The position numbers were made by a program, and so were the translations under genes. A DNA stretch of 64,000 nucleotides from Tribonema minus (lineage: Eukaryota; Sar; Xanthophyceae; Tribonematales; Tribonemataceae). How positions within the stretch are numbered: the stretch's first letter is position 1; every line of letters starts with the position of its first letter. Where the stretch lies: the NCBI GenBank assembly GCA_017506865.1, contig JAFCMP010000516.1:434001-498000 (forward strand), read 5' to 3'. This document shows positions 45,801 through 62,876 of the stretch, one piece after another. A model generated the notes under the pieces. That model searched no databases, was not told the DNA's origin, and saw only the letters and a program-made list of their open reading frames with translations.

Positions 45801-47645
45801 AAGTGCCTGCTTGAAACAGCATCATGTGTACTTCGAAACGACCTTGCAAAACAAGAAAGTCCTTGCCCAATCTCTCGCAAGCACTGCTCGCGTCCAACCC
45901 CGCGCAACGCTCCAACTTCAACTACTGAAACTTCAACAACGGGTCCGCACCTGCTCGTCGACGAGCGTGCGCGCGCATGCCCCCTTGGTCGGGTCGCTGA
46001 GGAACGTCACCTTGACGTCTCTAATTGAAGTTATCTTCAACAGCGCGCTCCTGACGTCGGCCGCGCTCGCATCCGCCGCAATGCTGCCGGACCGCTCGTC
46101 TTTGTACACGAGCGCGAAGGCGCCGCCGATGCCGTGGCAAACTACAAGTTGAACTTCGTTGACCTGACCGGTCGTGAGGGGGTCATCGCCGACGGGGCAC
46201 TCGCGCAGCGCGCAGTTGAAGCCCGTGTAGCCCTCGTCGCAGACGCACCTGCGCATTGCGGTTCGTGCAGTGCGGGGGAGAGGCGGTCGGTTTGAAGTTA
46301 GTGACATGCACCAACTCCAACTTCACTGCTGTGTATCGGTGCAGGCAAGTGCTGCAAACCACCAGCCAATTTTCAATTTGAAAACGTGACTGGCTTGGTA
46401 CGCCAGGGCAGGGATGGTGCGGTCAAGCTGGAGCTTGACTCGAAGTGTGATACTTCAAAGTATGTGCTGATGTAGCGGCAGTGGCACCAACTTGAAGTTG
46501 GTGACGTGCCTACTGACTTCAACGCTCATTGATGCAGGGAAGTGCTGAACCCAGCACTGAGGGGAGTGCAGAGGTGACTGGCTCGGTAACAGGGCAGGCA
46601 TGGGGATGCATGACTCAGTGGTGCCCAAAGCCCCTACAGCATGTCCGTACCCTGCTGCCGCTGTTGCAGCACGCGGCTGCGACATGGCAGTCACATGATA
46701 TTCTGGCGGCGGGACAGCCTGTTGCTGAAGCGCCGATCAAGTCTGCCATGCACGACACGCACTTCAAGTGCGGCACTTGCCATGACTCTAAGCCAAAGCA
46801 GCCCCCATTGCGGCAACAATGTGCAAATGTACAACGTAGCGCATGGTCAAAACTGAGGGGCATCTTCAGAACCAGATTTGATGACTGCTTACGGCATGAG
46901 GAAGCACATGGTGCTTAAAGGCAAGAGCATGCGTCACATGTAGAGAGTACCGGTCCTCGACAGCATAGCTTTACTCCCGCAATGCACAAGACATGAGCTC
47001 AGGGCCCTGACGCTGCTGGTGATGTGCTATGGTACAGCATGATAGAACGCTTCTACTGCAATCACAACTTGCTCAAGCATAGAGTTTTTTGGTGTCGCTT
47101 GATCGTGCTTTAAGTGTTCACATCAAGCCTCGAACGTACCGGTGTATGCCGTTGGCGTCCCAGACGTTGTTGTAGTAGAACGCCTCGGACGTGACGGGGC
47201 TGCGAAAGTGCTCAGCATATGATTGCAGACTATAGCACGTTCCGTGCCCGTTGCAATGGTCGTCCCTAGAGCACGACATCCTGTCGCAAGCGGCCCCAGT
47301 GAAGCCCGGCATGCATGAGCATCTGCCAGAGCTCCTGTCGCAGGCACCTCTGTTGCTGCACTCGGCGTTGGCGTGCGCTACGTCCGTGGCCGACGCGTCG
47401 TCTGACCAAGCTGTACCTAGAGGGCACTGCCTCTCGCTGCAATCCGCTCCCGACCACCCCGACCAGCAAACGCACTGATTGTATTGATTGCAGTCCCCGT
47501 GCATGCTGCAGCGGTTCGGGCACATGGCTCTTGACAAGGGTGCCCATGAGAGCAGCAGCAGCCATGGCCCTTGCCACCCCCTTCTCCGCCACCACTCTGT
47601 CAACTGACCCATTTCCGCGCGTCTTCGTCTCCTGCCCATCGCCAT
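42864..47645 (-). CDS. Secreted EGF/tenascin-like protein
   Basis: Exons 47645-47140, 46248-45951, 45348-45120, 44497-44130 and 43790-42864 join in frame to 775 residues. A basic start and the hydrophobic PWLLLLSWAPLSRA form a signal peptide; the mature protein begins with MCPNRCSMHGDCNQYNQC. Cys-rich EGF-type units follow, for example CVCWSGWSGADCSERQCPLG, AECSNRGACDRSSGRCSC, RCVCDEGYTGFNCALRECP, ECSDAGICDRERGLCRC and IECSGRGLCDRHKGVC. Between them lies a beta-rich module starting (N/P)EVQL(V/L)xC and ending V(K/A)VTF/Y, present twice (46150-45970 and 43530-43375). No membrane anchor is visible, so it is probably cell wall or extracellular. The final TAG at 42864-42866 overlaps a possible donor (CCT|GTAGCA) that is duplicated downstream, so the gene may run on. 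The ATG at 47639 is an equally possible start. Confidence 0.8.
43975..44062 (-). repeat. Donor-side copies of EGF-like gene exon 4
   Basis: CATGTACTCGCAGGCGCCCC (real 44129-44148) recurs at about 44030-44050 and 43987-44005 with small changes, in the downstream intron. GTGAGTACATG-type sequence is kept between the units. Confidence 0.85.
44603..44662 (-). repeat. Acceptor-side copy of EGF-like gene exon 4
   Basis: About 55 bases (GTCGTCGTTGGTCTCGAAGC and flanks) repeat the exon 4 start (real 44463-44500) in the upstream intron; the minus strand still reads VCSCFETNDD. Confidence 0.88.
46295..46610. repeat. Tandem intron duplication upstream of EGF-like gene exon 2
   Basis: TGAAGTTAGTGACATGC and GTGACTGGCTTGGTA at 46293-46405 are repeated as TGAAGTTGGTGACGTGC and GTGACTGGCTCGGTA at 46493-46590. 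Offset is about 200 bases. Confidence 0.7.
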
Positions 47646-47889
47646 TTCATGTGTGGCTGGCGCCTTGTCACCACGAACAACAAAAACCGTTACTAAAGTT
47701 CGTTTAAGTTTGAGCACTCGTAGAAAGCTTTTGTGCTTGGGTAAGGATCTACTTATGTACCGGATTAGTATTGTAGGCCTTCGCACCTCGCCGGGCTGAT
47801 GACGGCGCAGTTCCGCAGCATCGCATGCAGCGCGTAACATCGACGAGCGGCCTGCGCAGGCTTGGGATTATTCGCCTTGATCTTTCGAA
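47646..47889. promoter_or_regulatory. Shared promoter region of the EGF-like / AlkB-SRA-CW pair
   Basis: 244 bases between two divergent start codons. It contains ACTTTAGTAACGG-type AT-rich sequence around 47690 and a TTCGTTTAAGTTTGAGCAC stretch. Both core promoters must fit here. Confidence 0.45.
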
Positions 47890-50290
47890 ATGCCCGTCGA
47901 TGCGGTACGACGCAATGCGGATGGCTCAAGGCTTCACCTGCTGCTGCAAGCCTTGCAGCAGTCGAGCAGCACCGAGCAGGAGCAGCAGGCGCCAGCATCG
48001 TCGCCGCCTCCGCCGCCGCCTCCTCCGCCTCGCTGCGTGGGACGCAAGAGGGCTTGGGATGGCACAGCTTTCGGTCCGTGGGAGACTTTAGTTGCCCCCC
48101 CAGCCGGCTCAAAAGGACCTGGAAAGTGCCCCTCCGTCATGATCAACCTGAATAGAGGCGGCAGAATACTTTTCTGGCCAGGGCTTGTGGATGAAGCGAG
48201 ACGTAAAATACTGCATGAGGCGGTCCAGAACTGCATATATCAAAAACAGGCGGCACAGATGCGCGAGCTGTGGGGAGAGGATACGAAAGCCCACCGGTAC
48301 CATGGCTTATGTATGCGATGCCAGCCCATCAGCACCTTTCCAGGTAATTGCACGCAGAGATGGCTGTTCTCTGCCTCTAGAAGTGCAATTATGACTCATT
48401 GCAGTATTGTCAACACGGTATCTTTGATGCATTGCATCAACAGCAAGAGTTGCAGCTGCAACTACTTGTTGCGTACGCAATTGAACGGGGATCTCGGACC
48501 AAGAGTACAGTGCCAGCCTATGTCGCCATGAATGCGCCACTCTTGCTGCTACATACTTCCGCTGCTGCTGCTGCTGCTGCTTCCACACCGGTGCTGCTGC
48601 CGCCCACCAGAGTTGGACGATTTGAAGCGGGATCTAGAGTATCGCTACGGAGAGGAATTCAACATTGGCGTGGATGTGCTGGTGTATCGCGATGGATGGG
48701 ACTGGCACGACTGGCGTTCGGACAATACGCAAGGTGTGTTGCTGTCACGACCAGGGCTCTGGTTTGTGGCAGCATGACTATACCATTGGGTGTTCGGCCA
48801 TTGCGTGGCCATGTATGCACTTGCTCACGTATATGTGTATGCAGGCGCGCTTGCAGAGTTGGCATGTGGTGGACATCGCTGTAGCAAACACAAGTGCTTA
48901 CGATGCTGGCCGTATGGCGCATCCAAGGTTGGCGTATAGGGGTTATGTGAGCTAATGAGCTCAAATCATTATTCTACTTTCCAAATGCAATTGCAGTGCG
49001 CAGCACTGCAAAATGACGGCATTCTTGACCACTGCAGTTTAGCGCCGGCTCACTCGCGTACCACTACTTCAACAGTGCAGTCAACTTCAAGTGTCTCGAT
49101 CACCCCGTATGGCGTGCGTTGAGTTTGCATGTACGCACCAGCACGCCATGCCAAAGTGCATACTCGATATCACCCAACTGAGCACTGCTTCCCACCCCCC
49201 ATCAGGGGAGATTCGCGTGGTGTGCGTCGTGGTGCAGGCATATCAGGCGCGGCCGCTGCACTTCCGCCCGAAGTTGAGCGTTGCGGATGGGGGGCGTCCA
49301 CTTGAAGTTGGCGATGAGGAGGTGCAGCTGTTCCCACAGCAGGGTGATGCATACGATTTTGATGGCGCCAGCCAGGTGAGCGCTGCTGCGCGGCAGTGTT
49401 GCGTTGAGCGGTGTGCACCTTCCCAGCAGGGGTAGGTAAGTATGTCAAGTGTGCTGATTGCATGGATGTTCTGCCTGGGGTGCGCAGAAAAACGAAGGTA
49501 CCGTTTGCGTACGCAGCCATGTGCAGCTGGAACAACAAGGCGGTGAAGGGGGGGGGGGGAGGGGTAGTGGCTATGATTTACATTGGACAGGGGGCCCAAG
49601 AGTCCGCGACAGTTGGCAGCTGGCGTAGGTATGTACAAGCAGAAGGCGCATAGGCATACCCCCTCCCAATGGATGTGCATGACACTTTCCCAGATTCCAC
49701 AAGTTGAAGTTTCCAGGAGGAAGGCACCCTGTGGTGACGTTTAGGTGCAAAATACGTCGGTGTGCAATGTCCAATTGCAGAGCACGCAGTTTCAGCCACA
49801 CAGGCTCCTGCCAACTCGTTCCCGCTCATGCTTGCTTCCTCATTGAAGTAGGTTTACTTCATGTGTCGCTTGTGCCAGGCCTGCGCCCGCATAGCACCTG
49901 CTTAGGGTTAGGGTTAGGGTTAGGATTAGGGTTAACCTAACCCTAACACTAACCCTAAGCACCTGCTACATGTTGCTCATAGGCTATGAGCATGAGCGCT
50001 GCAGCCGCAACTTCGCATTGAAGTTCACACAGCCCCCTCCGTTCCATTGCGGCCAACCATCCCTTGTCACCTAGAGCTCAACGATCTTTTTGATTCGTTT
50101 TTCGTTTTTCATTGAAATCTGTCTGTTGGGCTCTAACTGAACATCACTTTGCCCCCCCCCCCCCCCCCTTCCCGAAATCCCTACTGCCGCTGCGTGCTGC
50201 TGCAGGTGGGCTACGAAAACTCGGTGCCAAAGCAGCCGCTTGAAAAGCCTGGCTGCAACGTCGTCATGCTGCGCGCCGGCCGCAGCCTCA
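47890..50290 (+). other. AlkB-like unit I (degenerate)
   Basis: Spans exons 1-3 and the start of exon 4. The iron-binding HxD reads RSD (Arg codon 48715-48717), the second His reads Asn (50218-50220), and the distal 2-oxoglutarate Arg is absent (CNVVMLR). All three metal or cosubstrate positions are changed, so catalysis is unlikely. Confidence 0.8.
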
Positions 50291-51130
50291 CCGCAGCAGC
50301 GGACACAGGCGCGCGCGCTGCCGCCCCATCAAACCCCCTGCAACCCCCCATTCTGAGCGCTGCTGCCTCCGCCGCTGCTGCTGCCGCCGCTGCGCCACCG
50401 CCGCCGAGTCTCACGCCTCGCTGCGTGGCACTCCGGAGATTCTGGAATGGCGCGGCTTTCGGTTCGTGGGAGGCGTTAAATACCGCCTCGGTTGGACCTG
50501 GACAGCGCACCGCCGCCACGATCAACCTGAAGCGAGGCGGCAGAATTCTTTTCTGGCCGGAAGTCATGTCGCATGACAGTTGCGCGCTCCTGCGGGACAC
50601 CATAGGGCGCTGCACGGGGTACAGGGAGTGCGCCTCTGGCATGTATGTTCAGCCAAAGGGGGCACGCGTGCCGCGGGGAGATGCTGCTGCCAACAGAAGC
50701 TACCTGTATAGTGGCCTGTGCCTGCGGTGCCAACCCATCGTCGCCTATCCAGGTAACTATGTGTTGCGAGTGCAGGCCGCAAACGTCTGTACTTGGGTGT
50801 GTATGCAGAAGGGACGGCGCGCTGCTTGTTGCAGCACTGCTCTCTGTTTGACGCTGCGCGATCACACCTGCTTTGCGCAGCATTTGACGGACCATTCTTG
50901 ATGCGAGCACACTGTTGCATAGCATCGACAATGCAGCATAGCAAGAGTCGCAGCCATTGTGATTGCCATTGACCAGGGATCTCGGACCAAGAAAATGGCG
51001 CCGTCTCATGTCGCGATGACTGAACATGCCGCTCTTGCTGCTACTGCCTGCGTGGAGGTAAATTGAAGTTGCATCCAGCATACTTCAACTGGGCGCAGAC
51101 CGCATGCAACTTCACTTCACCTCACCACCA

Positions 51131-51167
<37 letters not shown>

Positions 51168-54100
51168 CCGCCGGTGTTGCTGCCGCTCAGAGATGGAACA
51201 ATTGAAGCGGAAAGCAGAGCAGAGCTTCGGGGAGACGTTCAACTTAGACGTGGATGTGCTGGTGTATCGCGATGGAGATGACAGCTACTGCTGGCGTTCG
51301 GACAATGCGCAAGGTGCGTTGCAGTCTCTGGGCTGCTGCCCTGCCATTGTCTTAGTGACCAAGGCTCTGATTTTTGGCATTATGGCCACAGCAGCGCATG
51401 AACTTGGGTGCTTGGCCATTGCCTGGCCATGAAGTATGCTTTTGTGTGACATTCATCAATTCTCGCTGAGGGCGCGAAAAATCCCACCTGTTAATGTATA
51501 ACATACGGTATATGTGTATGCAGAAGCACTTGCAGAGTTGGCATGTGATAGACATTACCGCAGCAAACACAAGTTCTTATGATGCTGGCCATGAGGAGCG
51601 TATCCAGGGTTGGCGTATAGGGGTTATGGGAGCTAATGAGCTCTCAGCGTCTGTCTAGTTTCCAAATGCTGTTGCAGTGCTCAGCACTGCAAACGACGGC
51701 ATTCTTGATCACAGCAGTTCATGCGCCCCACAACCGCTCACCCAGTACTTCAACAGTGCAGTGAACTTCAAGTGCCAACCAACTCATAATGGCATGGGCT
51801 GACTTTGCGTGCGCACGCACGCGCTGCCGTCACCACGTGAGCCGTGCAGAACTCGCCAACACCGTGCAGAGCGCCGCAAAAGCGCCAGCTTCAACCGTGC
51901 AAGGCAGAAACTTCAACAGCGCCCACCATCCCCCCCCCCCCCCCCCTTGCACTTCCAACTTACTTACCCTGTGCTTTCGACTCACTCGCGCACTCACTCA
52001 CTCGCCCCCTCACTCACTGTGTCAGCGCTGAGCTGTGGCAGCACTCAGCTGTGGCAGCGCTCCTCGATCGCCGCTCAGAGCAGAGCTTTGCTTGCGAGGG
52101 CGGCTCGTGACTGCAGCTTGCAGTGCTGAGATTCAAGAAGCGCATCTACGCACCTGCGTGCACTAACCGTAAGCCTAACCCTAAATCCAGCGGGTGCTGC
52201 CCAACGAGCCATGCTTTGCAGTGCACGTGGCAGAGAGATCATCATGGCGCTGCAACTTCAACTTGTGAACTTCACCTGTTTCAGTTTCACACCCTTGCCA
52301 GACACGCAAGCTCTCCTGTACCTACCTACCCGCATGCCGGACATCATCATCATCTGAGCAATATGCTCCCCCCCCCCCCTCCACAGGCGAGACTCGCGTG
52401 ATGTGTTTTGTGGTGGAGGCATATTCGACGCGCCCGGTGCTTTTTCGTCCGAAGCAGAGCGTTGCGGATGGGGGGCATCCACTTGAAGTTGGCGATGAGG
52501 AGATACAACTGCTCCCGCTGCAGGGCGACGCCTATGACTTTGATGGCGCCAGCCAGGTGAGCGCTGCTGCATGGCAGCGTTGCGCTGAGCGCTGTGCACT
52601 TTCCCAGCAACGGTAGGTACGTATTTTTCAGGTGTACTCGTTGGTTCGAAGTTCTCGCTTGGGTGCGGAAAACCCAGTGCACTGGTCACTTGCGCAGCAA
52701 TGTGCTGCTGCAGCATGAAGTTGGTGAGGGGAGGGGGGGCGAACAGGTACGGCAGGGGGCTTCGGAGCACGCGACAGCTGGCACTAGGCGTACGTATGTA
52801 CAAGCAGGTTGCGCATAGGCATACCCTACCAATGATGTGCATGACACAAAGTTCATGTTTTCTTGACTTGAAGTTGCCAGGGGGCAGTCTTGATGTTGAA
52901 GTACGAACCAACTGTCATGCGCCTTCTGATGTTTAACTGCGGGCCAGCTGCAAGCGCGCCAAGTCAGCCCCAACACCTTCAACTAAATCGTTCCCGCTGA
53001 TGCCTGCTTTCTCATTGAAGTGACATTCTGCCCCTGCGCCCACCGCAACACCTGCTGCAGGTGGGGCAATGAGCACACGCGCTGTAGCCACAACTTCATG
53101 TTGAAGTTCACACAGCCGCCGCCCCCCGTTCCATTTGCACCTCGCCATTGGAGTGTAACTGAAAACTCATCCGAGTACGCAACCTGACGCCAATACCTGA
53201 TGTTACTGTCAACTTCAATGCCATTCCAAAAACGCAATCTGACGCCACAATCTCTTGTGATATTGTCAACTTTGCGCGCTGCTGCAGGTGGGCTACGAGC
53301 ACGCGCTGCCGCAAACCCATCGCGCGCCCGATGTTGTGCGCTCCATGAGCATCATGCTGCGCGCCGGCCGCGACCCCGCTGCGGCAGCGGTTACAGGAGC
53401 GCACGCTGGCGTCCTGTCAATCCCCTGGCAACCCCCTGCCCCGAGGGCTGCTGCTGCTGCCGCTGCTGCTGCCGCTGCTGCAGGCCACGACCCCGCTGCG
53501 GCAGCGGTTAGGGGAGCGGTTACGGGAGCGCACGCAGGCGCCCTATCACTCCCCCAGCAACCCCCCGCCCCAAGCGCCGTTGCTGCTGCCGCTGCTGCTG
53601 CCGCTGCCGCTGCTGCTGCTGCCGCCGCTGCGCTGCCGCCGCCTTTTCCGCCTCGCTGCGTGGGACGCAAGAGGGCTTGGGATGGCACGGCTTTCGGTCC
53701 GTGGGAGACTTTAAATGCCCCCCCACCCGGCTCACGCGGACCTGGAAAGTGCCCCTCCGTCATGATCAACCTGAATAGAGGCGGCAGAATTCTTTTCTGG
53801 CCGGGGCTTGTGGAGGAGGAGAGGCGCAGGCAGCTGCAGGAGGCCATGCTGCGCTGCGCCGCGTACCGGCAGTACACGTTCGGCATGTATCTGGAGCCGC
53901 GCGTGCATGTGCTGCTGGGCGATGACACCACAAAGGGCTACCTGTACCACGGCGTGTCGCTGCAATGCCAGCCCATCAGGGACTTTCCATGTAAGCCTCT
54001 GCAAATGCGCGCGGAGAGATGGCTGTTCGTTCGCCTGCTTGAAAATGCGCATCCACGACTGATGGCAGCGTTGCAGCAACGTAGATACATGCGTCAGTAT

Positions 54101-57100
54101 CCTGATGCAGTGCGTCAATCAAGCAGCAGCTGCGGTGAGATAATTGCGTACGCAGTTGAAGTGGACTTTGGATCAGGTACGTTGTGCTCACCCATGCTGC
54201 TGTCACATACTGAGTGCGCCACTCTTGCTGCTGCTGCTGCCGCTGCCGCTGCTGCTGCATCCGCCTGTGCTGCTGCCGCCCACTCCGCAGTGATGGAAGA
54301 GTTGAAGCAGGACCTAGAGTATCGCTACAAGCAGACATTCAACATTGGCGTGGATTTGCTGGTGTATCGCGATGGAAGGGACAGCTGCGGCTGGCATGCA
54401 GACAACACGCAAGGTACGCCGCAAGTCTCTTGCAGTAGCTGCTGTTCCGCGTTTGACCAGGGCTTAGGTTGTGGTTTCCATCGTGGAAGTGGCGGCTACG
54501 ACGTATATTCTCCATGGTATATATACTCTTAGAGAACTCGGGTGCTCAACCATGAATGCAGTCGTGCAAAGCAATGAGCACACTTGGCAGCGCGTGCCGC
54601 AATTGCACCATTTGTGCTGTTGACCATTGCACCAGCGTCCGAGGCTAGTCAGGAGGGGAATCCGCTGGCAGCTGAGCCTCGTGCTCAACAGTGGTGGTTC
54701 TAGAACGATGTGATGTTTGCAGACCAAGGATGCGCTTGGCTACACACCACAGCTGGTTGGTGGCAGCGGTGATGCGGACACTGCAACTTCAAGTCAACAA
54801 CTTCCCCCGTGGCACTTTTGCGCACCCCCCTGGTTCGCCCAAGTAGGAAGGCACCTCTGTACCTACCTACCCTGCACGCCCTACATTTGCGCAGACCTGA
54901 CTGCTGCTTGCCCCCCCGTCATCCGAAACGCGGGTAGTGTGCCGTGCAGTCGAGTCAACGCCGCTGCAAGTTCAACTCAACAACTTCACCTGAAGCGTGC
55001 GCCCCCTGTTGCCAAGCAGAAAGGCACATACCTACCTGCCCTGCATGCCCTACATCTTGCGCTCACCTGACCGCCGCTGGCCCCCCTGTCATGCAAAAAA
55101 CGGGTGGTGTGCCTCGCGGTCAAAAGACACGCCTGTAACTTCAACTCACCAACTTCAAGGTGCGCATCCTCAGGTCTCCAACGAACGCGAACACTCCTCT
55201 TTTACCTACCTACAGGGGATGTTGCATTATCTGAGCACTGCTTCTCTTCCCCCCCCCCAGGGGAAGCTCTCGTTGTGTGCCTCGTGGTGCATTCAAAGGA
55301 GGCGCGGCCACTGCATTTTCAACTCACCGACTTCAACTGTGCTGAGCTATGGACGTGCAATCCCCTATGCGTACCCTGCATGCCCGATTTTGTGTTGTTC
55401 ATCTAAATTTTCTTTTTACCCTTATCAGGCGAGACCCTTGTGGTGTGCCTCGTGGTGGAGTCTGAGGAGGCGCGGCCGCTGCACTTCCGCCCGAAGCTGT
55501 GCGTCGCAGATGGGGGGCGTCCACTTGAAGTTGGCGATGAGGAGGTGCAGTTGTTCCCGCAGCAGGGGGATGCCTATGATTTTGATGGCGCCAGCCAGGT
55601 GAGCGCTGCTGCGTGGCAGCGCCGCGTTGAGCCGTGCACACCACCGCAGCAAGGGTAGGTATGGTAGGCACGCGCCGTGTGCTGACAAGGGTGGTATGTT
55701 TTTTGCCCCCCACGCACCTGTCGCTGCGCACAGCTGCAGATGGGCTACGAGCTTGAGCTGCCGAAGTGGCCGCGCGCCGCATGATCATGACTTCAAATTG
55801 AACCTCGGTCGAGCCTGCCGTTGCAACCTGAAGCAACATTTGCCTGCCGCTGGTCCCGTCAAAACCCAAACAACATCACTTTGCCTCCCCCCCGCCCCTT
55901 CCCCCCGAAATGCCTGCCGCTGTGCGCGACCGCAGGTGGGGTACGAGCACGCGCTGCCGAAGCGGCCGCGCGCCGCCGCGCGCCGCATGTGCATCATCCT
56001 GCGCGCCGGCCGCGATCTCGCCGTGGCGACGGACACAGGCGTGCACGTCGGCGCCCTGTCATCCCCTGCGCAAACCCCCATCCCGAGCGCTGGTGCCGCC
56101 GCCGCCGCCGCAGCTGCCGCTGCTGCTGCCGCTGCCGCTGCTGCGGCTGACGGCGGCGGCGGCGGCGGCAGCGACCCCACCGCCGCCGCCGCTGCGCCGG
56201 CAGCAGCAGCGGCACCCAGCACTGCTGCTGCTGCTGCTGCTGCGTGCGGCGTTGGAGTGCTGCCGCACAGAGAGATTGTGCCGTATAGAGCATACAGTGA
56301 CGGCGGCAGCAGCAGCGGCGGCAGTGGCGGCATGAAGAAGCGGATGCAGCTACAGCTCGCGCCTCTGCTGCCGCTGCCGCCGGCTGCACCTCTCAATTCT
56401 GAGGCTGTGGATGCTGCAGCTGCTGCAGCGGCGGCGGCGGCGGTGGCGGCGGGGGAGGCATGGCACCGCGGCTGTGTGGAGCTGATGATGTACAGGCGGA
56501 CGGAGCTGGTGCGGCAGGGCTGGCACAGGTACCTACATACCCTACATACCTATGATGGATCTGGTGGGGGTTTGTGGGGAGTTTGGAGCCTGCCCATGCC
56601 CCGGCAGTAGCAATGACGGCTGGCACAGGTACCTACCTGCGTATGATAGGGCTGGCACAGGTACATGCATGCCTATCTGGTACCTACATACCTATGATAG
56701 GGCTACATGCACGCCTATGATTGGGTTTGGGGGTTTAGGGGGGTTTGGGTCCTGCATTTGCCGCGGTAGTAGCAACGAGGGCTGGCACAGGTATTTACAT
56801 ATTTAACAGGGCTGGCACAAGTACCTACATGCCTAACAACAGGACTGGCGTAGGTATCTACATACCTATGACAGGACCTGGGGGGTTTGGGAGGGTTTGG
56901 TTTCTGCACACGCCCCGGTAGTAGCAACAAGGGCTGGCACATACCTGCAGTAGGGTTCGGGTTGGTAGGTGCTGCAAATGTTCCAGTAGCTACTTAGGGT
57001 TAGGGTTAGGGTTGAGACGTCAAGGTCATCATTGGGAGCAGGGTCCAGTTGTGGGGGGCTCTGGAAGAATATGGTAGACATTGCACGTCAGAGTGCGGGT

Positions 57101-60100
57101 GTCGACCCAGTCATAGTCACGATCTCGTCGTAGACAGGAATGCCCTGCAGCGGCGCAGCGCGCTTGCTGCGTGCGCACGAGGTTGGCGTTGGCGGTGCGC
57201 CTCTGAGGATGCATTTTAAACGAGGCGCGCATTCGCCGTGCTGTGGCGCCTGCCCCTATGACGCCCAGCAGGCGCTGCGTGTACGCAACAACGCGCCGCG
57301 CGCCTTGCGCTGCGCACACCGACTTAGGGTTAGGGTACAGCAGGCGTTGAACGCGCTAAAACTGTCGCAGCAGCGCTCGGCGCAAAGCCTGAGCTTCAAA
57401 AAGGGTTAAGGTTAAAAAAGAGTAGGGTACAGGTCAGAGTCAGGCTTAGGGTTAGAATACAAGGCACTTTAAAATATGTGGCTCAACGCCCGCCTGCCAC
57501 GCAGGATGACCGGCGTGGCATCAGCGCAGCTGTGCTCTGCACACTTACATTTATGTACTGTTGGCGTTGAACACACATGAGCACCAGATCTTGATGGCGC
57601 AGCGCGCGTCGCATCGCCATCCCTAACCTTAACCCCAACCCTCGTGTGCAGCCTGCGCTTTGGACATAACACCAGGCACATCCGCACTATGAGTCTTGAT
57701 GCCCGCCTGCCATGCGCGGCATGAGCGGCAGCGCGGCGGCGGGCGCGGACGCCGTAATATGCACAACAGCGCTTTGCACAAGTACCTTGATGTACGACCA
57801 GCGTTGCACACCTATACAGCAGACTCTGATGCGTTGGACGCATCGCACGGCTAGCCTCAACCCTGATCTCAACCCTCGGTGTGCATAATACCAGCACATC
57901 GCATAAATAAGTGTCAATGTCCGCCTGCCGCGCCCGCTGCGCAGAATGGACCGGCGCGGCATCAGCGGCAGCGCGGCGGCAGGCGCGGACGCTGTCATTT
58001 CGTCGCGCACCGACGCCGACATGGGCGAGGTGGATGGCCTCACCTGGCTCACCTACACATCATCGACCAAGCAGGTGAGCGCTGCTGCTGCTGCAGCCGC
58101 TGCTGTTGCTGCTGCTGCTGCTGCAGCTGGTGCCGCTGGCGCTGCTGCTGCTGCTGTTGCTAGACGGCGGCACCGCTGCTGCTGCCGCTGGTGCTGCTGC
58201 CGCCGCCGCCGCTGCTGCTGCTGCTGCTGCTGCTGCTATTAATGGCCTGCTTGACGTGTACACGTCGTCGATCGAGCAGGTGAGCGCTGTGCAGGGCAGA
58301 GCGCTGCTGCCGGCGCTGCTCTTGCTGCTGCTGATGTGCGCGGCCCTTGTCATTACCGTCGCGCACGCCATCGATTGCAACTGGTGACAGGGCCCGCGGG
58401 CGCTGCGGATGTCGCACGTGCGCCGCCTGCCCATCCGCATTTACCGCTTACTTCAGCTTTCACTCTGCGCTCCACTAATCAACAGCTGTTTCCCCTCTGC
58501 TCATCCCTCCCTTGCTGACGCACGTGTACTTCGTAACGATCGGCACTCTTGCAGGGCACGCGAGCGCTGTGGACGTCGCACGTGCGCTGCCTGCCCATCC
58601 GTCTCTACCGCTTAATCCGGCTTTCGCTCTGCGCTTTACTGAGTAGCAGCTGTTCCCCCTCTGCTCGCCCTTCCCACCCTCCCCTTGCTAACGCACGTGC
58701 AATTCACGACCGTCACTGCAGGGCGCGCGAGCGCTGCGGACATCGCACGTACGCCGCCTGCCCATCCAAATTACTCTACATTTCACTTTGCTCTCCAGTG
58801 CGTAACAGCTGTTCCCCCCCTGCGCACCCTTCCCTTGCTAACGCATGTGCAATTCGCCACGATCGGCTCTTGCGACTGGCGGCAGGACCCGCGGGCGCTG
58901 CGGATGTCGCACGTGCGCCGCATCTGCCGCTTGCTTCAGCCTTCACTCTGCGCTCCACTAATTGACAACCGTTCCCCCTCTCCGCACCCTCCCCTTCTAA
59001 CGCACGTGCAATTCACGACCACCACTGCCGCAGGGCGCGCGCGCGCTGTGGACGTCGCACGTGCGCCGCCTGCCCATCCGCCTCTACCGCTCGTCCGCGC
59101 TGCCGCCGCCGCTGGCGCCGCCGCCGCGCACCGACGGCGGCGTCGCCTACCGCTACGACGGCCTCTACTTTGTCGCCGCCGCGTATGACGAGTGGGGTAC
59201 GCGCCTCACGAGCGAGCCGCGCTGCGCGCCACCAAACCCTAACCCTAGATCACGGAAAGGGGGCGGCGGCAGCAGCAGCGCAGCCATCGGCGGCAGCGGC
59301 GGCGATGGCGGTGACACGGGCGGTGATAGGGAACATGGTGGCGGCAGCGCGTGCGGCAGCGCCGTTGATCAGCGCTGTGGAGAACCGGCGGAAGCAGCGG
59401 ACGGTGGCAGAGGCGGCAGCGATGATGGCGCCGATACGTACCGTAGGGCTCAAGCAGGAGGCAGCAGCCGCTGCGGCAGCGCACTGGGCACACCCGACCG
59501 TGAGGCGTATCGCAGCGGCGTTGGTGTCCATGGCACTTACAACGGCGGCAGCTGCGACGGCGGCAGCGCAAGCATGGATGGTCACCAAGGAAAGGATGCA
59601 GGCAGAATGTTCAGCACAGCAGCCGGCGACAGCAAGGGTGAGCAAGCGGCGGCAGCAGCAGCAGCAGACCGTAACGATGCCACCAGCACCCGCCGCAGCA
59701 GCAGCGGCAGCGTTGATGGTCGCCAGGGCGGCAGCGCACGGGGCGGCCACTCACACGACGGTGACGGCGGCGGCGGGGGTGGCGGCAGCTGCAGCGACGG
59801 CGGCAGCGGCATCAACGATGGCAGTGATGGCGGCGGCGCTGCCGACGCTGCTGACAATATGCCGATCTGCGTCACCACGTTCCGCCTCGTGCGCGACCAG
59901 CGCCTGAACGGCGTCAGCGACGCGCAGCTGTGGCGGCACGTTGAGGGCGCCGCGGCGGCGGCGGCGGCGGCAGGGGCGCAGCGGCAGCGCTCCGCAGCAG
60001 CGCTCAGCAGCGCGGCATCGGCAGCGCAGCGGCGCGAGCTGCGCGGGGGTGCTGCGCACCCTTCAGAGCGCGCGCCGCCGCCGCCGCCAGCAGCGGATGC

Positions 60101-60758
60101 CGACTGGAGCACGACGCTGTCCTGGGCGGTGGCGGCGGGCGTCTTCTCGGCGCACCGCGCGGCGCCGCCGCTCGCCGCCACCGCGTTCGACGCCATCGTG
60201 GCCCTCGCCGCCATACAGACTCTGGCGGGGGTCAAGGACGCCGTGTGCAGCCACGCCTCCGGCGGCGGCAGCAGCAGCAGCGCTGCGCCGCCGCCGCCGC
60301 TGCACTACTCGGCGGCGCTGCGGCGCGCGCTGCGCGTGACGCCGCGCGGCCGCGCCGCCGCGCGCGCGCGCGCCGCCGCCGACGCGCCGCCCCCCGAGAC
60401 GTGGGCGCAGTGCGCGGACTGCGCCAAGTGGCGGCGCATCAAGCCGGCGAGCAGGGCGGACTGGGCGCGCGCGAGCGCGGCGCTGCGCGGCGCCGCGCGC
60501 TGGACGTGCGCGCGCAACGTCCTCGACCCGCTGCGCAGCGCGTGCGCCGCGCCCGAGGAGGCGTGGGACGCGGACAAGCCGTGGTTCATGGCGGACGCGC
60601 CGTGGGACGGCGGCAGCGGCGGCGGCGCCGCGACTGCCGCCGAGCCTGCGCCGCTGCTGCCCAGCTCTGGCAGCAGCGACGGCGCAGCCGCCGACGCAGC
60701 AGCCTCTGCCTGTGACGCCAGCGCCAATGAGGTTGATGGCGGCAGAAATGTTGCGGCA

Positions 60759-60789
<31 letters not shown>

Positions 60790-62876
60790 AGCCCGACGTC
60801 TGGGCGCAGTGCACGGCGTGCGCCAAGTGGCGGCACATGAAGCCCGTCACCGCCGCGGAGCGCGCGCGGATCCTCGCGCACCTCGAGGGCGACCTCAAGT
60901 GGCGCTGCGCCGATAACTATTTCGACCCGACGCACAGAACGTGCGACGCGCCAGAGGAAGTCTGGGACGCTGATGAGCCGTGGGTGGATGCGTGCGCGGA
61001 TGCTGCCGCCGCCGCTGCCGCTGTGCTGGCGGCGCATGCGGGGCTGCGCGCCGCGCACTCGTCAGCAGCTGCTTCCGCTGCCGCTGCTGCTGCCGGCACG
61101 CGCGGAGGCGGAGCGTCTGCCGCTGCTGCGCACGCCGCGATGCCATCGCTCAGCGGGTCGACAGCGGACACCTTGCCCGGCTACCATGGCCCTCATGGCA
61201 TAGGGCAACAGCTGCCACCACGCCATGCTGCAGCAGCCCCGGCGGCACTCGATCGCGACAAAACCGGCGCCTTCACCACAGGTGGCGGCGGCAGCGCAGC
61301 GGCAGCGGAGCAGCAGGGCCGCGACGCGCCGCGGCGGCGGCCGTCCGCGCGGCACCCGTTCGCGCGCACGCTGCGGCCGTGCGCGCGCTGCCGCGCCGCC
61401 AAGCAGGGCGCGTACTTCTGCCGCGTCGGCAAGCGCCACGAGGCGCACGAGGAGGACGCGGCGCGCGCATGGGCGCCGCCGCAGGGCTTCGCGGCCTGGC
61501 TCGCCGAGCACTGCGCTGCGGGGGGCGGCGCTGCTCAGGCGGACACGTCAGCAGCGGCGGCGGTGCCAAAGGCGGCGGCGGCGGCGTTAAAGGCGGCAGC
61601 GGCAGCGCCAAAGGCAGCGGCGGCGGCGGCGGCCCCAAAGGCGACGGCGGCGGCCCCAAAGGCGACGGCGGCGGCGCCAAAGGCGGCGGCGGCGGCAAAG
61701 TCCAAGGTGGTCCTGGTGTCAGGGGTAGAGACGCCGCGCGACGCTGCCGGCGCGGCGTCGGCGGCGCGCGGTGCCTCGAGGCTGCGGCCCGCTGCCGGCG
61801 AGGCAGAGCTCAACAGCGCTGGCGGCATAAGCAGTGCAGCGGCACGTGATGATCAGCGCTGTCGCAGCAGCGCTCAGCATAGCGCACGTGACAGCGTGCG
61901 CGCGGTGGCGCGCGCAGGGCTGCCTTCGCAGGGCCGTTGCGCTGAGGCGGCAGCGGCGGCGGCGGTGGCGGTGGCGGCGGCGGCGGCAGCGGCTGCGTGG
62001 GCCGATGGCTCTATACGCCAGAGCGCTGCACTGGCAGCAGCAGCACTAGCGGCGCTCCATGCTGAGCTGCCAAGCCCACGCGCGCCGCAGTCAGTTTGCG
62101 GGGGATGGACTGCAGGGCCAAAGGACCAACCAACGGCACCGGCAGTGAGTGGCAGCGCCGCGCTGCCTGTGACAGCGCGTGCTCGGCCTACCAACTGCAA
62201 ACTTCAATATGAAGCTCATGCTGCGCCGGGCGGCCGCCGTGAGCACGCCAACCCGCTTGTCCCGTCGCCGGCTACCGTTGCGGGCTGGCGCAGCGGCAGC
62301 GGTCTTGCCGCACACGACTACATGTCAACACGTAACGAACATGACGCGACGCCGCCGCAGCTGCCGCCGTCGCCGCAGCGGCGCCGCTTGCGGGCGCTGC
62401 CAGCGAACGATGCGTCCACGCTGGGCGCTTTTGTAACTGCCAACTCGCATCAGCGGGGTCCCGTGGCGAACGCTGACGGCAGCTCCGCGAATGAAGCCGA
62501 AACGCTGTGCGGCAAGCGCACGCGGCAACAACGCCGCCACGAAGAGCCTGCAGCCCTGAGCATGCGCCGCGCGGATGAGTTGCCCGATGTGCGCGACAGC
62601 GAAGCGCCGCTGGCATTGCTTGCGCGCGCGACACGGGCGCAGAGCAGCACGTTGAGCGCTGCCGCCGCCGACGCCGATGACGATGCGCGCTGCTCCAAGC
62701 GCAGCCACCTGACTGCTGAGCATCATCGCCACCCCGACGGCGCGCGCCACACCGAGCGCAGCTCCGTGAACGATGAGCATCACCATCGTCACCCGCAGCG
62801 CGCGCCGCACAGCATGCCCGCAGCGGCGGCGCCGCGCCGCAAGTACACCACGCGTGCGCTCACGGGCGGTGTGTGA
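47890..62876 (+). CDS. Triple AlkB-like dioxygenase - SRA-YDG - double CW zinc-finger chromatin protein
   Basis: Exons 47890-48343, 48611-48733, 49206-49375, 50206-50752, 51191-51313, 52387-52556, 53288-53990, 54291-54413, 55429-55598, 55936-56528, 57945-58074 and 59034-62876 join in phase to 2382 residues. Units I-III each have GGRILFWP, a VYRDG(x)D strand, a GDAYDFDGASQ turn and a VGYE(H/N) strand. That is the AlkB 2-oxoglutarate/Fe(II) fold, which oxidatively removes alkyl groups from DNA or RNA. Unit III has WHADN (His799, Asp801), YEHALPK and RMCIILR, a complete site. Unit I has WRSD, YEN and no distal Arg; unit II has WRSD, YEH and no distal Arg. The SRA starts with VELMMYRRTELVRQGWHR, crosses two introns, and shows YRYDGLYFV and VTTFRLVRD. 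CW fingers lie at about 1558-1622 and 1690-1752. Likely a nuclear modified-base reader and eraser. The shared exon linking unit III to SRA is the key evidence for one gene. Confidence 0.88.
49893..49967. repeat. Head-to-head telomere-repeat insertion with 10-bp direct repeats
   Basis: (TTAGGG)n followed by (CCCTAA)n occupies 49903-49957 and is flanked on both sides by AGCACCTGCT (49893-49902 and 49958-49967). It lies in the intron before exon 4 of the AlkB-SRA-CW gene. Confidence 0.9.
50390..53370 (+). other. AlkB-like unit II (degenerate)
   Basis: HxD reads RSD (51295-51297). The second His is kept (53300-53302), and the distal Arg position is Ser (SMSIMLR). Its first exon is the most diverged of the three units (CVALRRFWNGAAFGSW). 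Confidence 0.8.
54925..55350 (+). repeat. Three decayed acceptor-side copies of AlkB unit III exon 3
   Basis: The exon start (real 55429; GGTGTGCCTCGTGGTGGAGT) recurs at about 55275 with roughly 60 bases of good match, at about 55107, and more weakly at about 54938, each followed by an AACTTCAACTCA(A/C)CAACTTCA-type stretch and a CTACCTA tract. Confidence 0.8.
55728..55790 (+). repeat. Acceptor-side copy of AlkB unit III exon 4
   Basis: CAG|ATGGGCTACGAGC, then CTGCCGAAGTGGCCGCGCGC, repeats the real exon start at 55933-55985. The Fe-binding His codon is Leu in this copy, so it could not serve as a working alternative exon. Confidence 0.85.
56529..56960 (+). repeat. Six donor-side copies after the AlkB/SRA linking exon
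   Basis: GGGCTGGCACAGGTAC of the exon end and donor (real 56518-56533) recurs near 56620, 56651, 56780, 56809, 56840 and 56931. Longer units also share GGGGTTTG and CCCCGG(C/T)AGTAGCAA stretches. Confidence 0.88.
56995..57450. repeat. Scattered telomere-like repeats
   Basis: TTAGGG runs occur at about 56995-57013 (three units), 57325-57338 and 57438-57449, with degenerate AGGGTTAAGGTTA at 57403, inside an intron of the AlkB-SRA-CW gene. Confidence 0.8.
57480..57760 (+). repeat. Two acceptor-side copies of the SRA exon 57945-58074
   Basis: GCCCGCCTGCC, CGGCATGAGCGGCAGCGCGG and GGGCGCGGACGCCGT at 57698-57756 copy the region around the real acceptor (57920-57995). A shorter copy lies at 57487-57525. 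Both are in the upstream intron. Confidence 0.85.
58228..58292 (+). repeat. Donor-side copy of the SRA exon
   Basis: GTACACGTCGTCGATCGAGC followed by AG|GTGAGCGCTG copies the exon end at 58048-58084 after a CTG-rich spacer. It could act as an alternative donor only if an acceptor is used upstream. Confidence 0.8.
58388..59033 (+). repeat. Tandem array of four pseudo-exon copies before the last exon
   Basis: Acceptors at 58390, 58554, 58721 and 58885 precede copies of the real exon start (AG at 59033), with a period of about 148-167 bases. Each has GCGCTG(C/T)GGA, TCGCACGT and CGCC(T/G)-type codons. In frame they encode variants of RALWTSHVRRLPIRLYR. Confidence 0.92.
60398..60990 (+). other. 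Two CW-type zinc fingers
   Basis: Each has WAQCxxCAKWRxxKP, a WxCxxN(V/Y)xDP core and CxAPEE(A/V)W, with all four zinc-ligand Cys. CW fingers bind the histone H3 tail, usually methylated Lys4. A third candidate zinc site, CARCRAAKQGAYFC followed by RHEAH, lies at about 61378-61446. Confidence 0.9.

What the first reader, a model, noticed from the sequence alone, without database searches (positions are those of the whole stretch)
47890..62876. AlkB-AlkB-AlkB-SRA-CW-CW: a possible undescribed DNA-modification eraser
One continuous, in-phase 12-exon model fuses three AlkB-type dioxygenase units with a 5-methylcytosine-reading SRA domain and two histone-reading CW fingers. The exon 55936-56528 carries both the end of AlkB unit III and the first SRA strand, so the fusion does not rest on intergenic guesswork. 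In established biology, SRA domains recruit DNA methylation machinery and AlkB enzymes oxidise alkylated bases. Having both in one polypeptide suggests targeted removal or oxidation of a methylated base at marked chromatin, functionally parallel to TET enzymes but from a different dioxygenase branch. I know of no described protein with this order, but I could not search.
Basis: partly seen in the sequence, partly recalled or inferred. Interest (0 to 1): 0.93.

Follow-up and report, generated by a model that had tools for sequence, protein, structure and literature searches.

The report
Algal AlkB-SRA DNA-base oxidase gene
A yellow-green alga has one gene that joins AlkB-type base-oxidising enzyme units to a DNA-base-gripping SRA domain and histone-reading CW fingers, and relatives of the enzyme-reader pair occur in diatoms and other algae, pointing to an unexplored way of editing chemical marks on DNA.

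Summary
The 12-exon model (47890-62876, all GT-AG, 2382 aa) encodes AlkB-AlkB-AlkB-SRA-CW-CW; the window is from Tribonema minus. The fusion is no oddity: three searches gave 68 other proteins, 50 with both domains by BLASTP, AlkB before SRA in 50 of 50; named ones come from diatoms, Triparma and Aureococcus. Two unnamed relatives (P0009, P0010) also have CW fingers after the SRA. The public model of this gene stops at 57406 and lacks SRA and CW. Only AlkB unit III keeps the full Fe(II)/2-oxoglutarate site; units I and II lost the first metal His and a core Arg, and none of the 68 relatives shows such a triplication. A relative's predicted structure matches ALKBH3/ALKBH2 and TagI/UHRF1 SRA folds. 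Two points weaken 'TET-like 5mC eraser': the SRA base-pocket segment is family-specific and does not align to solved SRAs, and the acidic residue that contacts the base in AlkB is Thr/Ser here. Best reading: a chromatin-targeted DNA-base oxidase, probably tied to cytosine methylation, substrate unproven. No paper on the family was found in the searches made; key reviews were not held.

The parts
47890..48343 (+). Exon 1: start codon, N-terminus, first part of AlkB unit I
   Evidence: same start as deposited P0001
48611..48733 (+). Exon 2: AlkB unit I, metal-site exon (WRSD instead of WHAD)
49206..49375 (+). Exon 3: AlkB unit I, core strands
50206..50752 (+). Exon 4: end of AlkB unit I (YEN instead of YEH) and start of unit II
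51191..51313 (+). Exon 5: AlkB unit II, metal-site exon (WRSD)
52387..52556 (+). Exon 6: AlkB unit II, core strands
53288..53990 (+). Exon 7: end of AlkB unit II and start of unit III
54291..54413 (+). Exon 8: AlkB unit III, metal-site exon (WHAD, intact)
55429..55598 (+). Exon 9: AlkB unit III, core strands
55936..56528 (+). Exon 10: end of AlkB unit III (YEH...R...R), Ala-rich linker, first SRA residues
57945..58074 (+). Exon 11: SRA, middle part with the family-specific segment
59034..62876 (+). Exon 12: end of SRA (YRYDGLY at 59145), two CW fingers, tail and stop
60399..60560 (+). CW finger 1
60801..60959 (+). CW finger 2

Best explanation
The gene encodes a chromatin-bound Fe(II)/2-oxoglutarate DNA-base oxidase of an AlkB-SRA family found in ochrophyte algae. 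AlkB unit III is the only competent centre: it would take a flipped-out modified base and hydroxylate its methyl group. The SRA beside it would hold DNA with a base-flipping fold whose pocket has been rebuilt, and the CW fingers would anchor the protein on a methylated histone tail. Units I and II are decayed tandem copies that may serve as spacers or DNA grips. Shown: gene structure, domains, catalytic residues, conservation, the fold of a relative. Inferred: DNA as substrate, base oxidation, recruitment, the link to cytosine methylation. Which base is oxidised is left open here; 5mC is one candidate.
Against: No transcript, protein or activity was seen. The folded protein is a 40%-identical relative. 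Unit III has Asn where 39 of 41 relatives have Asp just after the metal Asp, which might lower activity. P0028 and P0029 lost HxD, so some members may act without catalysis. RNA as substrate is not excluded. The window shows no clear CpG depletion (0.95 observed/expected), so methylation here is not evident from sequence.
Confidence: 0.55

Rival explanations
1. Steered alkylation repair: unit III removes 3mC (and 1mA), which cytosine methyltransferases make as a by-product, at methylated or transcribed chromatin.
For: Nearest solved relatives are ALKBH3/ALKBH2; methyltransferases are stated to form 3mC (PMC8610418, passage citing Rosic 2018); the genome is rich in methyltransferases.
Against: The residue at His+4, acidic in AlkB (D135, numbering recalled), is Thr in unit III and T/S in 34 of 41 relatives; AlkB D135N dropped from 3.7 to 0.018 on m1A (PMC11065319, passages). 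Four other AlkB-family places exist in the assembly and could do repair.
Confidence: 0.2
2. TET-like 5mC eraser, as the reader proposed (a special case of the best explanation): SRA finds 5mC, unit III oxidises it.
For: AlkB, ALKBH2 and ALKBH3 oxidise 5mC weakly in vitro (PMC8508711, passages); hosts named in the searches belong to groups with reported DNMT5 (PMC9998398, passages); the Tet_JBP search of the assembly gave 0, but no control rang, so absence is not shown.
Against: Pocket segment of the SRA not alignable to 5mC-binding SRAs; no TET-type domain in the pieces scanned.
Confidence: 0.2
3. Non-catalytic chromatin protein: AlkB part is a scaffold, SRA and CW do the work.
For: Units I and II are decayed; P0028 and P0029 lost HxD; unit III has D-to-N after the metal Asp.
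Against: The metal triad and core Arg are kept in unit III and in nearly all relatives (39-41 of 41).
Confidence: 0.12
4. Annotation artefact: AlkB units and SRA-CW belong to separate genes or transcripts.
For: Deposited model ends at 57406; 1.4 kb intron before exon 11.
Against: Shared exons 4, 7 and 10; relatives have the same AlkB-SRA join; SRA and CW share exon 12.
Confidence: 0.04

Closest known systems
ALKBH3 and ALKBH2 (AlkB homologues; 3mC/1mA DNA repair)
   Different: His+4 acidic residue is Thr/Ser; joined to SRA and chromatin readers; extra decayed AlkB copies in Tribonema
SRA domains of TagI, UHRF1, UHRF2, SUVH5
   Different: Base-pocket/finger segment replaced by a family-specific conserved stretch
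TET/JBP dioxygenases
   Same: Possible same role, oxidation of a DNA base mark (inference)
   Different: No Tet_JBP match in the five pieces scanned; AlkB branch instead
Unnamed AlkB-SRA proteins of Triparma, Cyclotella cryptica, Stephanodiscus, Thalassiosira profunda, Cylindrotheca, Aureococcus and metagenomes
   Same: Same AlkB-SRA core and order
   Different: One AlkB unit each (no second full unit in 68 relatives); other chromatin modules in most of those scanned

Membership tests
AlkB (2OG-FeII_Oxy_2) | HxD...H metal triad and core Arg pair | tested here: met
   Unit III H, D, H, R, R. Not met in unit I (R, D, N, C, R) or unit II (R, D, H, S, R)
AlkB (2OG-FeII_Oxy_2) | Curated profile cut-off | tested here: inconclusive
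   Unit III 26.2 bits against 31.2; relatives P0002, P0003 and P0005-P0013 over it
AlkB (2OG-FeII_Oxy_2) | Double-stranded beta-helix fold | tested here: met
   In relative P0002; unit III itself not folded
ALKBH2/ALKBH3 subgroup | Acidic residue at His+4 (position by spacing; numbering recalled) | tested here: not met
   Thr in unit III; T 30, S 4, N 3, D 2, E 2 of 41 relatives
SRA | SAD_SRA profile over cut-off and SRA fold | tested here: met
   41.9 bits against 30.7; fold in relative P0002
5mC-reading SRA (UHRF1 type) | Alignable methyl-base pocket and finger (recalled features) | tested here: not met
   That stretch of the profile is left unaligned to TagI, SUVH5 and UHRF1
5mC-reading SRA (UHRF1 type) | Binding of 5mC DNA | not testable with these tools
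   needs a binding assay
CW zinc finger | zf-CW profile over cut-off | tested here: met
   46.1 and 39.7 bits against 27.5;
TET/JBP | Tet_JBP domain | tested here: not met
   Not among the matches at E<=10 of the five pieces scanned; some linkers were not scanned
UHRF1 | RING finger beside the SRA | tested here: not met
   No RING match in the SRA piece or exon 12
AlkB-SRA family (named here) | AlkB then SRA in one chain, SRA segment E.DG..W..Y.S..QG | tested here: met
   235.4 and 123.9 bits to models without Tribonema; segment present, though two Arg of the usual RE.DG..W.RYTS are G and T here
Active DNA-base dioxygenase | 2OG-dependent oxidation of a methylated base | not testable with these tools
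   needs an enzyme assay

The most novel reading that the evidence does not exclude
AlkB-SRA proteins are a class of DNA-mark erasers or oxidisers in ochrophyte algae, separate from TET/JBP, in which both the SRA reading pocket and the AlkB catalytic pocket (acidic residue to Thr/Ser) have been rebuilt to handle one DNA base that is neither a 3mC/1mA lesion nor bound in the standard 5mC mode.
Probability: 0.3. Interest if true: 0.92.

Novelty: new variant of a known kind. Interest (0 to 1): 0.74.

Why it matters
How diatoms and related algae remove or edit DNA marks is poorly known. A conserved protein with an intact dioxygenase and a base-flipping DNA-binding fold in one chain, tied to histone readers, is a direct candidate, in organisms where genes can be knocked out. 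If true it would add a second dioxygenase branch to the editing of DNA marks in eukaryotes, or show alkylation repair steered to marked chromatin.

Tried and rejected
Chance or reading error: rejected by the blind ORF scan and shuffles. Assembly duplicate as source of the three units: rejected, since units are 54-70% alike in protein and 72-80% in DNA. Dispersed gene family: unit III and SRA matched only this locus (10 of 10 and 4 of 4 matches; one SRA match is an intron echo). Selection on units I and II: dN/dS by NG86 0.77 (I-II), 0.57 (I-III), 0.67 (II-III); by YN00 about 0.65, 0.42, 0.43 (ratios taken): relaxed, not decisive. Family searches of the assembly for SRA and Tet_JBP gave nothing, but no control genome rang, so absence is not shown; the SRA of this gene itself was missed there because it is split. 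MT-A70: one match, 8.8e-4, no control rang. CpG depletion not evident. The reading 'all three AlkB units active' was dropped. In the VIA list the 50 rows are AlkB-type and FTO chains with one TagI and one UHRF1 row; families not listed are not excluded.

Literature: listings show no paper on an AlkB-SRA fusion; two reviews by the Aravind group and Rosic 2018 were not held, and I know them by recall only. PMC11431407 was searched for active-site residue names and held none.

Full report
What the window is. It lies in G000:C513:434001-498000 of a 158.2 Mb, 554-contig assembly. The protein search returned P0001, 'hypothetical protein JKP88DRAFT_248192 [Tribonema minus]', whose eight pieces map letter for letter onto 47890-57406. 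[quoted passage not shown]

Check of the observation. The three AlkB units share intron phases (1,1,0) and exon lengths (123 and 170 nt), the mark of tandem duplication of a whole block; an intron stretch of units I and II is also 80% alike over 329 columns. Exons 4 and 7 each end one AlkB unit and begin the next, and exon 10 ends unit III and begins the SRA. Pfam recognises the SRA (1.1e-10, over cut-off), two CW fingers (3.4e-19) and unit III (1.1e-5, under cut-off), but not units I and II. Solved relatives by sequence: ALKBH3 for unit III (5.8e-7) and TagI for the SRA (8.2e-5).

Relatives. Three searches gave 69 proteins, P0001 included. Of the other 68, BLASTP at E<=0.01 found AlkB in 68 and SRA in 50, AlkB first in 50 of 50; family models found SRA in 51, two of them weak (P0037, P0053), AlkB first in 51 of 51. 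The precomputed Pfam column names both domains in 35 of the 68 (counted by hand). These searches were seeded with AlkB-SRA proteins, so the share says nothing about AlkB proteins at large. Named sources are Aureococcus anophagefferens, Triparma laevis, T. strigata, Stephanodiscus triporus, Thalassiosira profunda, Cylindrotheca closterium and, by the CCRYP prefix (recalled), Cyclotella cryptica; the group of each is recalled. The Cyclotella entry P0013 carries a gene-caller score string that, as I recall its meaning, says all splice sites have transcript support.

Architectures. I scanned 22 of the 68 with Pfam. CW occurs in P0008, P0009 and P0010; in P0009 (three stretches) and P0010 (two) the best CW lies after the SRA, as in Tribonema. 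PHD-like domains occur in P0003, P0006, P0007 and P0011, chromo/Tudor-knot in P0017, P0025, P0028 and P0029, SAP in P0008, F-box in P0002. Not all members pass every cut-off: AlkB is under it or absent in P0004, P0019, P0025, P0028 and P0029; SRA is under it in P0003, P0016 and P0025 and absent in P0037. In a tree of 33 rows P0010 joins Triparma (99/95), while Tribonema is a long branch of odd composition whose place is unsure. No relative shows a second full AlkB unit, so the triplication is so far Tribonema's own.

Models without Tribonema. Models from 32 relatives give 144.9, 141.8 and 235.4 bits for units I, II and III and 123.9 bits for the SRA, with no gap at either exon junction. The deposited model scores at best 118.8 bits in any AlkB stretch, 10.9 to 63.0 in the other four, and has no SRA. 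A scan of 2091 ORF pieces without a gene model put all hits below 1e-4 (nine AlkB, two SRA pieces) in this gene, in order, on one strand.

Which units can work. Of 44 AlkB columns conserved in at least 90% of 42 relatives, unit III keeps 41, units I and II 31 each. Units I and II have Arg for the first metal His and Cys or Ser for the first core Arg; unit I also has Asn for the distal His. Unit III is complete. Its one change near the metal, N for D at the next residue, is shared by all three Tribonema units.

What the pockets suggest. The His+4 residue is D135 in E. coli AlkB by spacing (numbering recalled). A review says that D135 can bond the N6 of adenine and N4 of cytosine, that D135N fell from 3.7 to 0.018 on m1A and that D135T was best on m1G (PMC11065319, passages). 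In the family it is T 30, S 4, N 3, D 2, E 2 of 41. The SRA profile aligns to TagI, SUVH5 and UHRF1 on both sides of positions 49-70 but not there; canonical SRAs hold the base pocket and finger in that stretch (recalled), and the family has its own conserved segment. An earlier profile did draw an alignment through this stretch of TagI, with a 12-residue insert, so the break is not absolute. Both recognition sites look family-specific; the base is open.

Link to cytosine methylation. A survey reports DNMT5, HELLS, CDCA7 and a DNMT4-like protein in T. minus (PMC10538959, passages). Another reports DNMT5 in diatoms, bolidomonads and pelagophytes and links DNMT5 to linker methylation in Aureococcus (PMC9998398, passages). 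Ectocarpus has negligible 5mC (PMC12477816, passages). The assembly gave 123 scored C5-methyltransferase matches, a lower bound. AlkB, ALKBH2 and ALKBH3 oxidise 5mC in vitro, ALKBH2 least (PMC8508711, passages), and methyltransferases form 3mC (PMC8610418, passage). Both the eraser and the repair reading stay open; the window's CpG content gives no help.

Novelty. Searches listed no paper on an AlkB-SRA fusion; I saw listings, and passages only of the papers cited. Reviews most likely to mention it were not held, so the claim is 'not found', not 'never described'. Verdict: known domains in a conserved combination without a described function, a new variant of a known kind.

Noticed in passing
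G000, e.g. L036 (C340:3500-13400): At least 123 C5-cytosine-methyltransferase matches in the assembly, many in frames of 1000-3500 aa; in L036 the domain shares one open frame with reverse transcriptase, RNase H and integrase domains, so a retroelement carries a DNA methyltransferase. In the part of L037 seen, only the methyltransferase was found.
   Followed up: partly
window 55258-55318, 55717-55780, 56542-56946, 57700-57885, 58259-58336, 58388-59030: Introns hold partial copies of neighbouring exon edges (exons 9, 10, 11 and several copies of the start of exon 12, period about 164), as if exon borders were repeatedly duplicated in place.
   Followed up: partly
window 49902-49934 and about 56993-57015: Short TTAGGG runs inside introns of the gene.
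   Followed up: no
P0001 / JKP88DRAFT_248192, window 47890-57406: The deposited model of this gene skips exons 2, 8, 10, 11 and 12 and parts of 4 and 7, and ends in a tail with no family-model match.
   Followed up: yes
P0003, P0006: Aureococcus AlkB-SRA proteins are named 'SET domain-containing protein', but Pfam found no SET domain at E<=0.01.
   Followed up: yes
P0028, P0029: Chromo/Tudor-knot members whose AlkB part has lost HxD while the SRA remains.
   Followed up: partly
window 47118-47867, - strand: Open frame with EGF-like Cys repeats (by eye) just upstream, head to head with this gene.
   Followed up: no
G000:C35:117016-118371: Three CW fingers in another 2211-aa frame.
   Followed up: no
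window 61371-61442: Unassigned Cys/His cluster in the protein's tail; the pattern was not seen in the 69 database proteins.
   Followed up: partly
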